Shown: piece by piece, positions 57,309 to 64,000 of the stretch | Layout: each line of letters begins with the position of its first letter | How positions within the stretch are numbered: the first letter of the stretch is position 1 | Origin: Methanohalophilus mahii DSM 5219 | Lineage (GTDB): Archaea > Halobacteriota > Methanosarcinia > Methanosarcinales > Methanosarcinaceae | Direction of reading: 5' to 3' | DNA length: 64,000 nucleotides | NCBI RefSeq assembly: GCF_000025865.1 | Contig: NC_014002.1 | Span: forward strand, 868,001-932,000 | Position numbers and translations under genes: made by a program | Notes under the pieces: generated by a model | The model's database searches: none | Told to the model about the DNA's origin: nothing | What the model saw: the letters and a program-made list of their open reading frames with translations, nothing else

Positions 57309-58052
57309 ATGGACATTTCAAAAAGTTATAAAATATTTGGAATAACCCTGGTGGTTGCATCAACCATTCTTTACTTCTTCCATTACCTGATTTTTCACGA
57401 CCCACACCACATATTCATATTCCTTGTGAGTGATATAGCATTTGTTCCAATAGAGGTTTTGCTTGTCACGATGATATTACATAAACTGCTTAGTGATATG
57501 GAGAGAAGTAAGCGGCTTGAAAAATTGAATATGGTCATCGGTGTTTTTTTCAGCGAAGTGGGAACGAAATTGCTCACTTTCTTTTCAGACGCCGATCCAG
57601 GTCTTGAAAATGTTCGAAATCGGCTAATCGTAAGGAAAGACTGGACCGACGAAGATTTTGAGGAAATTACTACATTCCTGCGCAATTATGAATATTCGGT
57701 GAATATAGGCAACGTAGACCTTGTCTACCTGCGTGATTTCCTGCGAAAACACCGCAGTTTCATGGCAGGTTTACTTGAAAATCCTTCACTGCTTGAACAT
57801 GAATCCTTTACGGGTCTATTGCGTGCAGTATTCCACCTGATGGAGGAACTGGTTAATCGTGAGGATTTGCAAAATCTCCCCGAGTCGGATTTCGATCATC
57901 TTGGCCTGGATATAGAAAGGGCTTATAGCAGGCTTGTCATAGAATGGCTGGATTACATGAAGTATTTAAAGGACAACCACCCATATCTCTTCTCCCTGGC
58001 AATGCGAACCAATCCTTTTGACACAAAGAGCTCTGCAGTAGTCCATTCGTGA
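57309..58052 (+). CDS. Conserved membrane protein, unknown
   Basis: 247 residues. Two membrane helices (about 9-28 and 36-60), then a soluble helical domain (SKRLEKLNMVIGVFFSEVG, LRDFLRKHRSFMAGLLENPSLLEHESFTGLL in part, RLVIEWLDYMKYLKDNHPYLFSLAMRTNPF in part). The C-terminal part resembles a family found widely in methanogens and anaerobic bacteria; no function known. Followed 48 bases later by the MFS gene in the same direction. Confidence 0.78.
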   Translation: MDISKSYKIFGITLVVASTILYFFHYLIFHDPHHIFIFLVSDIAFVPIEVLLVTMILHKLLSDMERSKRLEKLNMVIGVFFSEVGTKLLTFFSDADPGLENVRNRLIVRKDWTDEDFEEITTFLRNYEYSVNIGNVDLVYLRDFLRKHRSFMAGLLENPSLLEHESFTGLLRAVFHLMEELVNREDLQNLPESDFDHLGLDIERAYSRLVIEWLDYMKYLKDNHPYLFSLAMRTNPFDTKSSAVVHS

Positions 58053-59371: not shown

Positions 59372-60472
59372 TTAATTTGGGCCTGGGATTTTGATAGTGA
59401 ATATTGTTCCCTTTTCTTTTTCACTTTCTACCCAAATATCTCCACCATATCTTTCGATGACCTTTTTTACTATGTATAGGCCAAGTCCTGTATTTCCGGT
59501 AGTTCCATGAGTGAAATTTTCATCAAAAATTTTATCGATTACATCATTGTCAATACCGTTTCCATAATCTCTTACACTAATTTGACAATGGTCACTTTTA
59601 TCAGTTATGACAAATCTCATTTTTTCAGTATTGCCATGTTTAATTGCATTTCTTATAAGATTGTCAAATATAGAATAAATTGCTTCATCCGCTACAATAT
59701 CTCCATTACCAATGATGTTAAATTCGATCGGATAATTGGAACTTACGTCTTCTATAACTTCACGAACATGGTAAACATCAAGATTTCCACCTTTAGAAAT
59801 CGTATACTCCAGATTTTTCATATCGTTAACTAATTTTATACTTGCTTCAACCGACATCGTTGCTTTATCAAGATAATTAAAATCATTTTTTTCCTTTGAT
59901 AGATATATTGCCATTTGAATGACATTTAGGAAATTCAATACATCATGTCTCAATATCTTGTTAATTACATACAAAAAATCTTTTATTTCTGTTTGGCGCA
60001 GTTCTATCTTTTTTCTCTCATCTATGGAATGGATTATTATTACGTACCCACTAATTTTTTCAGGATCTTCCTTTATTGGAGAAACACTAAGTTCAACAAA
60101 AACCTTGTTGTGATTAGCGGAAATAAACAGCATTTCTTTGTTCTTCAGGGGATATTGAGATCTATGTTCAGAAACCCTGAACGTTTCATTATCAGTGTCC
60201 TGTATTATTTCTTCAAAATACAATACCTCATCTACCGGTCTATCAATCATATCCTTTTCATTTCCGGTAAAAGAAATTGCATTTTGGTTTGTTAACACAA
60301 CATTGAAATTTGCATCTGTTACAATTACGGGATCTGTTATATTTTGTAGTGTAACTCTGAATCTCTCGATTTGGTATTCTAAGTCCCGATTTGTTTTTAC
60401 AAGATCGCGTTGAGTATTTACCAACTCATTATTCAGCTGCGAAATTTGGTTATAGATTTCATTGTCATCCAT
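59372..60472 (-). CDS. PAS-domain sensor histidine kinase
   Basis: 366 residues from ATG 60472 (MDDNEIYNQISQ). N-terminal coiled coil (about 1-40), one PAS domain (about 42-165), then a kinase core: H-box INKILRHDVLNFLNV (phosphoacceptor His), N-box FDNLIRNAIKHG, G1 VRDYGNGID and G2 GTTGNTGLGLYIVKKV. No membrane helix and no receiver. It belongs to the methanogen type with LRHDVLN. Same strand and close to the helical protein (42 bases) and the cobalamin sensor, so these probably form one signalling unit. Confidence 0.9.
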   Translation of the reverse strand: MDDNEIYNQISQLNNELVNTQRDLVKTNRDLEYQIERFRVTLQNITDPVIVTDANFNVVLTNQNAISFTGNEKDMIDRPVDEVLYFEEIIQDTDNETFRVSEHRSQYPLKNKEMLFISANHNKVFVELSVSPIKEDPEKISGYVIIIHSIDERKKIELRQTEIKDFLYVINKILRHDVLNFLNVIQMAIYLSKEKNDFNYLDKATMSVEASIKLVNDMKNLEYTISKGGNLDVYHVREVIEDVSSNYPIEFNIIGNGDIVADEAIYSIFDNLIRNAIKHGNTEKMRFVITDKSDHCQISVRDYGNGIDNDVIDKIFDENFTHGTTGNTGLGLYIVKKVIERYGGDIWVESEKEKGTIFTIKIPGPN

Positions 60473-60513
60473 GATTATCCTAGTACTAAACATATTTCAT
60501 TAATTCGTTTACT

Positions 60514-61011
60514 TTATTGAAATGAATGGCGACTACAAATTGATCTGTAACCACCTATCTTTTCTTCACATATTTCTATATGTTTTTCGTTATCAACCAT
60601 TATTTTATCAAGATTTGAGAAGAATGAATCTATGTCTTTATCGGCAATTACTTCATCTACTGATTTAAAAACTTTTACCATTTTTATCGATAAATACGCT
60701 TTTCGTGCTAGTTTCAGGTACTTTAAAATTTCCTGAAAAATTTCCGGTACATCCAGTCCTTTAAAATCAATATCTTCTTCAGGGAGGCCGGGAGGTTTTT
60801 TATCCGGAAAAGCTTTGCCGATTTCTTCAAACCACTTGGCAAGTAAATTCACGTGTTTTTCTGTAGCAATTGCCATCATTTCTAATTCTTCATCTGAATT
60901 ATCATCGATTTCGATGAGTGCTTCCCATATGCTTAATTGAACCATTTCCGTTTCTATCCAGTAGAATTTTTCAAGCATTGAGATGAGTGCTTTTTCTTCT
61001 CCTATAGTCAT
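60514..61011 (-). CDS. Helical protein between cobalamin sensor and histidine kinase
   Basis: 165 residues from ATG 61011 (MTIGEEKALISML); an ATG at 61047 opens the frame. All-helical; four long helices are likely, with two TEKH/NEKH spots (IATEKHVNLLAKWF and DNEKHIEICEEKI) and Glu in the first helix, which is ferritin-like in layout, but the spacing E-K-H is not the ExxH of di-iron sites. I name no family. The position between sensor and kinase suggests a linked role in that pathway. Confidence 0.65.
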   Translation of the reverse strand: MTIGEEKALISMLEKFYWIETEMVQLSIWEALIEIDDNSDEELEMMAIATEKHVNLLAKWFEEIGKAFPDKKPPGLPEEDIDFKGLDVPEIFQEILKYLKLARKAYLSIKMVKVFKSVDEVIADKDIDSFFSNLDKIMVDNEKHIEICEEKIGGYRSICSRHSFQ

Positions 61012-61077
61012 CAAACCATCCTGCACATTTTGGCATATGAAAACCACTTACATTGACCTAACAAATTGAAGGATATT

Positions 61078-62169
61078 TCATTCAAACAATTCATTTGCTA
61101 CTTCCATGGATTGTTGTGCATCTGGAGCGCTAAGATCTGCACCGACCTTTTCCCATAAATCAGGGTCTATGTTAAAAGGATGCCCTCCTACCATGATTTT
61201 TGTATCATCTAAGTCTTTTGACCGTCTCAGGTCTTCAATCAGGTTCTTTAGCTTATGGACATTGATCGAAAGAGTGGCAGAAATAATAACCAATTGAGCA
61301 TTTGTATCTTTGACCATCTGAATTATGCTTGATGCGGGTGTGTTTGCTCCCAGATAGTAACTATCCCAACCATCCATCTCGAAAAAATCAGCAACCATTC
61401 TGATACCCAACTCATGTAATTCACTACCTATACAGGTAGCTATTACAGTATGTCCATTCTTTTGTTGTGTCATTATTCTGGGATAAAGCTGGGACATTAT
61501 GTTCTGCGTAGAAGCGGTTATATAGTGTTCTTTAGCCACACTGATCTTATTTGTTTGCCATAGTCTGCCCACTTCATACTGCGAAGGTTGAAATATGTTG
61601 AGGTAAATATCTTTTATGGATGCACCTTCCTCCAATATTTCAAATATTAAGTATGATGCTTCCTTTTTTTGCCCTTCAGTCAAAAGGTCAAGATATTGTC
61701 CGGCTAATTCTCCATATTCTGTACTCTTATCAATGTAGGAGGGAGAAAAGGTATCTTCATTTTTGAATGCCATCAGGCCTGCATCCAAATATTCAAAAAC
61801 AACACTTATATCTTCTTTTGTAATCTGGCCCTGTGAAGCACATTCAGATATAACTTCTTTTATAATTTCAATATTTGTAATCAAATATTTTTCATGAATT
61901 CCCAGATTGCTCATCAATACCTTTACCCATTGCATGTAGTCTAAAAAAAGAGTTTTGCTACAAAGGCAAATTGATTCTCCCAGATAAAAAATATGATATT
62001 TGCAATCCTGCAAAGAAAACTTTTTGCCTTTCTCACCATATTTTGAATATAATTCAGACTGTCTGGAATATTGTATTTCTACAGTTTTTTCTGCAAGCAT
62101 GCTGCAATTGTTATAGAGGAATTGACCGATTGCTGTACATTTTAATGGAATGTTATTGTTTTGTGGCAT
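61078..62169 (-). CDS. Cobalamin-binding sensor protein with CarH-like W-x9-EH motif
   Basis: 363 residues. Residues 1-140 are an unknown, Cys-rich, possibly sensory domain. Residues about 150-235 form the four-helix cap (B12-binding-2) with VGRLWQTNKISVAKEHY: Trp204, then nine residues, Glu214-His215, the W-x9-EH motif of CarH/LitR photoreceptors. Residues 240-363 are the Rossmann B12 domain with lower-ligand His252 in GSELHELG, then YLGANTP and ISATLSINV. No MerR DNA-binding part and no methyltransferase partner next to it. A sensor of light or corrinoid signalling to the neighbouring kinase is inferred; a degenerate corrinoid methyl carrier is the alternative. Confidence 0.85.
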   Translation of the reverse strand: MPQNNNIPLKCTAIGQFLYNNCSMLAEKTVEIQYSRQSELYSKYGEKGKKFSLQDCKYHIFYLGESICLCSKTLFLDYMQWVKVLMSNLGIHEKYLITNIEIIKEVISECASQGQITKEDISVVFEYLDAGLMAFKNEDTFSPSYIDKSTEYGELAGQYLDLLTEGQKKEASYLIFEILEEGASIKDIYLNIFQPSQYEVGRLWQTNKISVAKEHYITASTQNIMSQLYPRIMTQQKNGHTVIATCIGSELHELGIRMVADFFEMDGWDSYYLGANTPASSIIQMVKDTNAQLVIISATLSINVHKLKNLIEDLRRSKDLDDTKIMVGGHPFNIDPDLWEKVGADLSAPDAQQSMEVANELFE

Positions 62170-62510: not shown

Positions 62511-64000
62511 GTGGAGTGGAAATTGATTTTATTTAAAAAACCTTCGATTGATACTGCATTATTTGATCTGTGGGAAGATAATATTGCAATTATCTCTCCC
62601 GATGGCATAATTATTTACACGAATAAAAGCTGGAAACAGTTTGCTCAAGACAATGGTCTGGATCCATTAGAATGTAGTGAGGGTACCAATTACCTGCAAA
62701 TATGTGATAAAGCAATCGGGGAATTTTCAAGTGAATCATCCATTGCAGGTGAAGGTATAAGGGACATAATATCTGGAAAAAAACATATTTTTAAGCTTGA
62801 GTATCCCTGTCACAGTCCGGATGAAAAACGCTGGTTTTTACTAAAAGTAACCCCACTCTCAAAAACATATCCTACGGATGTTTTTATACAGCATATCGAC
62901 ATCACTGAGAGGAAAGAAGCTGAATTGCTGGCAAAGAAAGAACAAAGGCAGTTAAAAAAGGCACAATCTATCGGGAATATGGGAAGCTGGCAATTTAATC
63001 TCAATACCGGTACTATAACTATTTCAGAAGAAGCTTGCAGAATATATGGACTCGAGATTGGTAAAATTTATACCATCACAGAAGTGCAAAAAATTCCTCT
63101 TCCTGAATACAGACCAATGTTAGATGATGCACTGGAGAAACTTGTTAAAGGGGAACGGGAATACGATGTTGAATTCAAAATAAAAAGGCCCAGTGATGGT
63201 CGTATTGTCGATATACATTCAGTTGCCGAATATGATTCACAAAATAATACTGTTACAGGTATTATTAAGGACATAACAGATAGCAAGAAATCTGAAGCAC
63301 AAATCCTGAAAAATGAACAAGAACTTGATGCGATCTACCAAAACGCTCCCGTTATAATGATGCTGGTGGATAAAGAAAGACGAGTTCGCAAAATAAATGA
63401 TTCGGGAGCTAAGTTTGCAGGCGAATATCCAGATGAACTTATTGGAATGCGAGGTGGTGAAGCTTTAAGGTGTATTCATTATCTTGATGATCCAAAAGGT
63501 TGTGGATTTGGACCTTTCTGTGATGAATGTACTGTTCGAAACACAGTAATGGATACTTTTGCTACGGGTCAATCCCATGAAATGGTAGAAGCTACACTCC
63601 CTTTTTTACTGGATGGTAAAAATAAAGAATTGACATTTCTTCTTTCGACATCCCTCATTCATTTTGAGAAAGAACCGATGGTTCTGGTTAGCATTCTGGA
63701 TATTACTGCACGTAAAGAAAGTGAAGCTAAATTCAAAAGTTACATTAACAACGCTCCGGATGGCATTTTTATAACTGACAAAAATGGTTATTATGTAGAT
63801 GTCAACCCTGCTGCCTGCGAAATTACAGGTTATTCAGAGGATGAATTACTTGGAATGAATCTGCTGGACCTACTGCCTCATGATATCCATGAATATGTAA
63901 TTAATAAGTTTGAAGATGTAAAAAATAAAGGAAAAGCAGACATTGAAATCCCATATTTGACTAAAGAGGGAGACAGAAGGTGATGGAGGGTTACAGCTGC
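62511..64000 (+). pseudogene. Multi-PAS sensor gene with an in-frame TGA, running off the window
   Basis: From GTG 62511 (or TTG 62523, which GGAG precedes better) 490 codons give four PAS modules: about 20-133, 150-260, 270-400 and 405-490. The third holds a Cys cluster, Cys321, Cys331, Cys337 and Cys340 (GCGFGPFCDEC), likely a metal or Fe-S site. The frame meets TGA at 63981-63983 inside the fourth PAS, after KEGDRR; the next codons give WRVTA, the expected continuation of a PAS strand (usually R-W-W-x-V-x-A). So TGA most likely replaces TGG. The gene probably continued past the window to a kinase. Confidence 0.7.

What the first reader, a model, noticed from the sequence alone, without database searches (positions are those of the whole stretch)
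59372..62169. Cobalamin sensor with photoreceptor motif beside a histidine kinase in a methanogen
The 363-residue protein has B12 lower-ligand His252 (GSELHELG) and the W-x9-EH motif (Trp204, Glu214-His215) that in CarH protects adenosyl-B12 and serves light sensing. It has no DNA-binding domain; instead a helical protein and an LRHDVLN histidine kinase follow on the same strand. CarH has His132 next to Trp; here it is Gln205. This could be a B12-based light, redox or corrinoid-pool sensor with kinase output, which would be new for methanogens.
Basis: partly seen in the sequence, partly recalled or inferred. Interest (0 to 1): 0.75.

Follow-up and report, generated by a model that had tools for sequence, protein, structure and literature searches.

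The report
Probable B12 light-sensor kinase pair
A salt-loving methane-producing archaeon carries a protein that joins a phycobiliprotein-like (bilin-type) domain to a vitamin-B12 domain with all the light-sensing residues known from bacterial B12 photoreceptors, and its gene sits with a dedicated histidine kinase, so this anaerobe probably senses light through B12 and a two-component pathway.

Summary
In detail: three same-strand genes, with Trp204, Glu214-His215, Gln205 and His252 as stated. Residues 13-140 are a phycobiliprotein-like globin domain, so the protein is a photoglobin-B12 fusion, i.e. a photocobilin with reversed domain order. In 60 homologues the B12 light residues are invariant, and the bilin-pocket residues Asp55, His59 and Trp81 are kept in 59, 59 and 60 although the rest of the domain drifts. 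The partner is the histidine kinase. A conserved ~33-residue helix (LNNELVNxQRELxKKN) lies in the gene beside the fusion in 81 of 85 loci; within the order it scores above 60 bits in exactly the five genomes that carry the fusion. The middle 'helical' gene is a ferritin-like, non-core paralogue. Best explanation: AdoCbl photolysis in the fusion protein changes its grip on the kinase helix and so kinase output. Binding, light response and kinase contact are untested. The methanogens have no detected heme oxygenase or phytochrome, so the globin's chromophore is an open question. The family is known (photoglobins/photocobilins); the methanogen kinase-coupled form and its constant helix were not found in the papers held.

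The parts
61078..62169 (-). Photoglobin-B12 fusion protein P1, 363 aa, the sensor subunit
   Evidence: ORF; 60 homologues; dN/dS 0.12 between two congeners
61762..62133 (-). Phycobiliprotein-like globin domain (residues 13-136)
   Evidence: AF2 pLDDT mostly above 90; smURFP 7uqa Z 16.7, 128 residues, 2.3 A; allophycocyanin beta 8ddy E 4.7e-8 and SasPcob bilin domain 8j2w E 5.9e-5 by profile; 17 of 22 homologous domains match PF00502 Phycobilisome
62005..62007 (-). Asp55 codon; counterpart of SasPcob Asp270 and of the Asp of the phycobiliprotein CxRD motif
   Evidence: Profile alignments; D in 59 of 60
61927..61929 (-). Trp81 codon; counterpart of SasPcob Trp296 (contacts ring D of biliverdin)
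   Evidence: Alignments; W in 60 of 60
61474..61713 (-). Four-helix cap of the cobalamin domain (residues 153-232)
   Evidence: Pfam B12-binding_2; model
61525..61560 (-). Trp204 ... Glu214-His215, adenosine-capping motif
   Evidence: Invariant in 60 homologues; equals Trp61 and Glu71-His72 of SasPcob
61081..61455 (-). Rossmann-type B12-binding domain (residues 239-363)
   Evidence: Pfam B12-binding 1e-21; SasPcob 8j2w Z 25.4, 208 residues, 2.0 A for the whole cobalamin part
61414..61416 (-). His252 codon, lower cobalt ligand (equals SasPcob His108)
   Evidence: Invariant in 60; alignment
59372..60493 (-). Partner histidine kinase P3 (373 aa as ORF; likely starts at 60472)
   Evidence: PAS, HATPase_c; H-box LRHDVLN with His183; adjacent to P1 in Methanohalophilus euhalobius and Methanolobus
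60359..60469 (-). LNNEL helix of the kinase, proposed docking site for P1
   Evidence: In the gene beside P1 in 81 of 85 loci, no hit at E up to 1e-3 in any other ORF of those loci; above 60 bits only in the 5 of 149 genomes of the order that carry P1
60514..61047 (-). Ferritin-like helical protein P2 (likely starts at 61011); accessory, not core
   Evidence: Foldseek best matches all ferritin-like but weak, E 8e-3; absent from the same operon in M. euhalobius and Methanolobus

Best explanation
P1 and P3 form a split light-sensing two-component system. P1 is a photoglobin-B12 fusion (photocobilin kind, reversed order): its cobalamin domain binds adenosylcobamide base-off with His252 as lower ligand, and Trp204, Glu214 and His215 cap the adenosyl group and lie at the dimer interface. 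Green or blue light breaks the Co-C bond; with Gln205 in place of CarH His132 the light state should be aquo-cobamide rather than bis-His, as in SasPcob. Loss of adenosine loosens the P1 dimer and alters its contact with the helix LNNELVNTQRDLVKTN of kinase P3, switching autophosphorylation of His183 and transfer to one of the genome's response regulators. Shown by sequence and model: the domains, motifs, fold, gene pairing and conserved helix. Inferred: AdoCbl binding, photochemistry, docking on the helix, direction of the switch, the regulator. Whether the globin domain adds a bilin (red light) is left open.
For: Best solved relatives of the cobalamin part are photocobilins 8j2w/8j2x/8j2y (E 1e-21 single sequence; 2.5e-38 profile; Z 25). 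All residues shown to matter in SasPcob and CarH apart from CarH His132 are present and invariant in 60 homologues; three of the four published light-responsive signatures (GxxW, EH, GxxxP) are met and the fourth, GxxH, is SxxH here (for the signatures). The N-terminal domain is a bilin-type globin whose most conserved residues are W81, D55, H59, L63 and Y78 while the mean top-residue frequency is 0.50. Kinase pairing: helix in 81 of 85 neighbours, neighbours are HisKA/HATPase_c kinases, exact co-occurrence in the order. Precedent for a B12-type domain gripping such a helix: AppA SCHIC on the PpsR Q-linker, 4HH3, described in PMC9144470. Purifying selection: dN/dS 0.12 for P1, 0.20 for P3.
Against: No experiment. 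Methanogens live in the dark as a rule and no light-regulated gene is known here. The same residues would also support an AdoCbl-level sensor. The co-occurrence rests on about two independent lineages in the order. The docking role of the helix is inferred from conservation only. GxxH is not met strictly.
Confidence: 0.6

Rival explanations
1. P1 senses the corrinoid pool or its adenosylation/redox state in the dark, not light: AdoCbl-bound against empty, methyl- or Co(II)-loaded P1 sets kinase activity, for instance to control B12-rich methylotrophic methanogenesis.
For: The host genome has about ten other corrinoid proteins, so corrinoid status matters to it; the E-x-H site and Rossmann fold would bind several corrinoids; methanogens are mostly in the dark; AerR/AppA-type relatives also report redox or heme.
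Against: The adenosine cap W..EH is kept without exception (60 of 60) and is absent from seven carrier proteins of the same genome that were inspected; the family also keeps a bilin-type pocket, which has no role in corrinoid sensing.
Confidence: 0.25
2. P1 is an ordinary methyl-carrying corrinoid protein for a methyltransferase.
For: Weak NCBIfam similarity to MtbC and other carriers (E 4e-16).
Against: 59 bits against cut-off 350; the conserved neighbour is a kinase, not a methyltransferase; it has the adenosine-capping motif and an extra globin domain.
Confidence: 0.02
3. A laterally acquired bacterial light-sensor pair that persists but is decaying or without use in the methanogen.
For: Patchy distribution (5 of 149 genomes of the order), low GC, mixed archaeal-bacterial tree position; in a second methanogen lineage the globin pocket and kinase partner are lost.
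Against: Low dN/dS (0.12 and 0.20), all functional residues kept in all five Methanosarcinaceae copies, and retention across two genera.
Confidence: 0.06

Closest known systems
Photocobilins SasPcob (8j2w/8j2x) and AbDPcob (8j2y), PMC10979010
   Same: Cobalamin domain with W-x-EH and E/DxH motifs, Gln beside the Trp in SasPcob, bilin-type globin domain with Asp (Asp270 = Asp55) and Trp (Trp296 = Trp81)
   Different: Domain order reversed (globin first); no enzyme domain fused; output through a separate histidine kinase gene; host is an anaerobic methanogen with no detected heme oxygenase
Photoglobin family of globin-B12 proteins (Schneider et al. 2022; paper not held, known from citations in PMC10979010, PMC11796333 and PMC10151467)
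   Same: Globin-B12 fusion predicted to be a light-sensing unit in signal transduction
   Different: Could not read which lineages or kinase neighbourhoods they list; the constant LNNEL helix and methanogen members may or may not be covered there
CarH (Thermus thermophilus LitR/CarH)
   Same: AdoCbl domain fold and Trp/Glu/His light motif
   Different: No MerR DNA-binding domain; Gln205 where CarH has His132; 54.9 bits against cut-off 400
AerR/AppA SCHIC with CrtJ/PpsR (PMC9144470)
   Same: Separate B12-fold protein that acts on a partner through a long linker helix; AerR 7te2 matches at Z 20.9
   Different: Partner there is a PAS transcription factor, not a kinase; no globin domain
Methanogen corrinoid proteins MtmC/MtbC/MttC
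   Same: Same two-part cobalamin fold (3ezx Z 22.0)
   Different: No adenosine-capping W..EH in the seven corrinoid proteins examined here; not linked to kinases

Membership tests
Photocobilin / photoglobin-B12 photoreceptor | Cobalamin domain of the CarH/photocobilin type with lower-ligand His | tested here: met
   8j2w E 2.5e-38, Z 25.4, His252 invariant
Photocobilin / photoglobin-B12 photoreceptor | Trp and Glu-His adenosine-capping motif | tested here: met
   W204, E214, H215 in 60 of 60
Photocobilin / photoglobin-B12 photoreceptor | Phycobiliprotein-like globin domain fused in the same chain | tested here: met
   order reversed relative to SasPcob
Photocobilin / photoglobin-B12 photoreceptor | Bilin-contacting Asp and Trp | tested here: met
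   D55 = Asp270, W81 = Trp296 by alignment; 59 and 60 of 60
Photocobilin / photoglobin-B12 photoreceptor | Binds AdoCbl and biliverdin; green and red light response | not testable with these tools
   Needs purified protein and spectra
CarH | N-terminal MerR-type DNA-binding domain | tested here: not met
   No such Pfam match; NCBIfam CarH 54.9 bits, cut-off 400
CarH | His next to the Trp (His132), upper ligand in the light state | tested here: not met
   Gln205
SignatureFinder light-responsive cobalamin domains (GxxW, EH, GxxH, GxxxP) | All four signatures | tested here: inconclusive
   GRLW, EH and GANTP met; SELH instead of GxxH (G in 45 of 60 homologues)
Methyltransferase corrinoid protein (MtmC/MtbC/MttC) | Scores over family cut-off; methyltransferase neighbour | tested here: not met
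   59.2 against 350 for MtbC, 55.2 against 215 for TIGR02370; kinase neighbour in 81 of 85
Two-component histidine kinase (P3) | Phospho-acceptor His and ATPase domain | tested here: met
   HATPase_c 1.3e-26 over 271-371; LRHDVLN with His183; N-, G1- and G2-box residues visible in sequence
Ferritin-like protein (P2) | Four-helix fold with diiron ligands | tested here: inconclusive
   Foldseek best hits ferritin-like but E 8e-3; the Glu of the third helix in relatives (KYE) is Leu in P2

The most novel reading that the evidence does not exclude
The globin domain of this methanogen protein binds a real linear tetrapyrrole, giving a two-chromophore photoreceptor in a strict anaerobe that has no detected heme oxygenase or phytochrome; the chromophore would then come from an oxygen-independent route, from neighbours, or be a bilin-like molecule not yet known in this role. 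The LNNEL helix would be a general docking module by which B12 photoreceptors plug into histidine kinases in bacteria and archaea.
Probability: 0.25. Interest if true: 0.8.

Novelty: new member of a known kind. Interest (0 to 1): 0.58.

Why it matters
If true, some methanogens see light through B12 and a dedicated two-component pathway, which bears on shallow salt ponds and lakes where these methanogens live. The conserved kinase helix gives a defined site to test how B12 photoreceptors switch kinases, and a template for green-light-controlled kinases. The intact bilin pocket in anaerobes without a detected heme oxygenase makes a concrete question testable: what does an anaerobic photoglobin bind?

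Tried and rejected
Methyltransferase carrier: rejected by scores, motif and gene context. CarH membership: rejected, no DNA-binding domain and no His132. The helical gene as a core signalling component: rejected, absent from the operon in M. euhalobius and Methanolobus. Heme oxygenase (PF01126): none in the window's genome, 2 of 29 carriers; but some Azospirillum and Adhaeribacter genomes with phytochromes also score none, so a negative there does not prove that biliverdin cannot be made; the methanogens have neither. HutW-type anaerobic heme degradation: only sub-cut-off radical-SAM similarity. Riboswitch or other known RNA in the window: none at gathering thresholds. Literature: no held paper found that joins methanogens to B12 photoreceptors; the census of archaeal two-component systems does not mention B12 or cobalamin; the photoglobin paper itself is not held. 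Structure of a P1-P3 complex was not possible with the tools.

Full report
What is there. The window lies in a single-contig genome of 2,012,424 bases; the size equals, from memory, that of Methanohalophilus mahii, and relatives in the same genus include M. euhalobius. On the minus strand run P1 (62169-61078, 363 aa), P2 (61047-60514) and P3 (60493-59372) with gaps of 30 and 20 bases. P1 has B12-binding_2 and B12-binding domains, P3 has PAS and HATPase_c.

The missed domain. NCBIfam gave a weak hit of residues 17-132 to allophycocyanin beta (E 8e-4), and the best solved relatives of the cobalamin part were photocobilins, B12-bilin photoreceptors. A profile of 60 homologues (A2) matches SasPcob (8j2w) at E 2.5e-38 in two stretches: the cobalamin domain, and the N-terminal domain of P1 against the C-terminal bilin domain of SasPcob. 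A profile of the N-terminal domain alone matches allophycocyanin beta (4.7e-8) and SasPcob (5.9e-5); 17 of 22 single domains hit Pfam Phycobilisome (the window's own copy alone does not). The AlphaFold2 model (pLDDT 92.5, pTM 0.88) puts residues 150-363 on SasPcob (Z 25.4, 208 residues, 2.0 A) and residues 8-140 on smURFP, an engineered biliverdin-binding allophycocyanin (Z 16.7, 128 residues, 2.3 A). So P1 is a globin-B12 fusion of the photoglobin/photocobilin family with the globin first.

Residues. By alignment P1 Asp55 equals SasPcob Asp270, which contacts pyrrole rings A-C of biliverdin, and Trp81 equals Trp296, which contacts ring D; Asp55 also falls on the Asp of the phycobiliprotein CxRD motif. 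In 60 homologues W81 is invariant, D55 and H59 occur in 59, Y78 in 58, although the mean frequency of the commonest residue in this domain is 0.50 against 0.65 in the cobalamin part. The position of the covalent Cys in CxRD is Ser52 in P1; it is Cys in 16 of 60 homologues. In the cobalamin domain W204, E214, H215 and H252 are invariant. Gln205 is the common residue (47 of 60), as in SasPcob. Seven other corrinoid proteins of the genome lack W..EH. [quoted passage not shown] here it is SxxH.

The partner. Genes directly downstream of the homologues are histidine kinases. Their N-terminal domain varies and their phosphoacceptor type varies, but a helix of about 33 residues (YDELSRLNNELVNLQRELAKKNxELE) is constant. 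A profile of it hits the gene beside P1 in 81 of 85 loci and, at E up to 1e-3, no other ORF in those loci; the profile was built from 45-odd of these same genes, and the set of 85 contains a few duplicates of the same genome (L039/L119, L060/L121). In bacteria the helix precedes the phosphoacceptor domain; in Methanohalophilus and Methanolobus it sits at the N terminus before a PAS domain, and in three Adhaeribacter loci the protein ends with it, so it is kept when its neighbours change. Across 149 genomes of the order it scores 60 bits or more in five genomes, the five that carry P1, always in the adjacent gene cluster; all other hits score under 24 bits. These five represent about two independent lineages, so the co-occurrence is strong but not five independent events. 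A solved precedent for such contact is AppA SCHIC, a B12-type fold, on the Q-linker helix of PpsR (4HH3, as described in PMC9144470).

P2. It is a ferritin-like paralogue of a gene widespread in the family, missing from the operon in M. euhalobius and Methanolobus. Between the window and G041, P2 keeps 82% identity at third codon positions against 50-52% for P1 and P3, so it joined or recombined separately. It is not part of the core mechanism.

Distribution and origin. Full-length homologues at 39-46% identity occur in many bacterial phyla and a few archaea. The Methanosarcinaceae copies form one clade (98/83) within a mixed clade of archaea and anaerobic bacteria (91/97); lateral spread is likely but its direction is not resolved. 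In 392 genomes of the phylum 19 have a strong match. In one Methanomicrobiales genus the copies have no kinase nearby in those examined and most have lost the bilin residues, while E214, H215, W204 and H252 all remain. There the conserved part is the B12 light site, and the pocket residues D55, H59 and W81 are all kept only in the archaeal copies that sit beside a kinase with the helix. This is one clade against a few others, so it is suggestive only.

Chromophore. No heme oxygenase or phytochrome was found in the five Methanosarcinaceae carriers and no HutW over the cut-off. Since some bacterial carriers with phytochromes also lack a PF01126 match, the absence there is not decisive; in the methanogens both are missing. 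What the globin pocket holds, or whether it is empty, is open.

Mechanism, with status. Shown: domains, residues, fold model, gene pairing, constant helix, purifying selection (dN/dS 0.12 and 0.20). Inferred from the family: AdoCbl binding, green-light Co-C cleavage, aquo light state, dimer loosening (PMC10979010). Inferred here: docking on the LNNEL helix and kinase switching. The genome has 13 receiver domains over the cut-off, none in the window, so the response regulator is unknown. Probability of the light-sensing reading 0.6; of a dark corrinoid or redox sensor 0.25.

Novelty. The protein family is published. The methanogen kinase-coupled form and the constant helix were not found in the held papers, but the founding photoglobin paper could not be read, so I file it as a new member of a known kind.

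Noticed in passing
window 60514-61047 against L120 8027-8530: The ferritin-like gene keeps 82% identity at third codon positions between two species whose flanking P1 and P3 genes keep only 50-52%, and its protein is under weak constraint (dN/dS 0.41): recent insertion or gene conversion inside the operon.
   Followed up: partly
L145-L153, L159-L164 (Methanomicrobiales genus g65): Orphan photoglobin-B12 proteins with the bilin pocket residues mostly lost (Asp to Glu/His/Val, His lost, Trp to Arg in several) but the B12 light residues kept, and no kinase next door in those examined.
   Followed up: partly
A2 column of Ser52; e.g. L040, L042, L050, L070, L110: 16 of 60 homologues have Cys exactly at the phycobiliprotein chromophore-attachment position (C-x-x-D), so some may bind a bilin covalently, unlike published photocobilins.
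   Followed up: partly
L042 7045-7557, L056 7046-7573, L068 7062-7562: In Adhaeribacter the partner gene is only about 170 aa: the N-terminal domain plus the LNNEL helix, without a kinase.
   Followed up: no
L054 4105-5322, L070 7084-8334, L079 7011-8225 and others: Bacterial partner kinases share an N-terminal domain of about 140 aa (GxALLCDxxGxIxxVLRDDLGL...) without a Pfam match; perhaps a divergent PAS.
   Followed up: no
L165, L166: Other methanogens have a stand-alone light-type B12 domain (215-236 aa, W/EH/H kept, no globin) next to histidine kinases.
   Followed up: no
L010 2792-4081: In M. euhalobius a transposase pair resembling IS200/IS605 TnpA and TnpB lies directly upstream of the fusion gene (named from sequence only).
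   Followed up: no
window 59372-62169: The operon is among the most AT-rich stretches of the window: GC 0.336, rank 9 of 306 windows of 2.8 kb.
   Followed up: no
window 62511-63983: A divergently transcribed multi-PAS protein of 490 aa or more starts upstream of P1, near the window's end.
   Followed up: no
window 57309-58052: A 247-aa protein with hydrophobic segments at its N terminus has no Pfam family over its cut-off.
   Followed up: no
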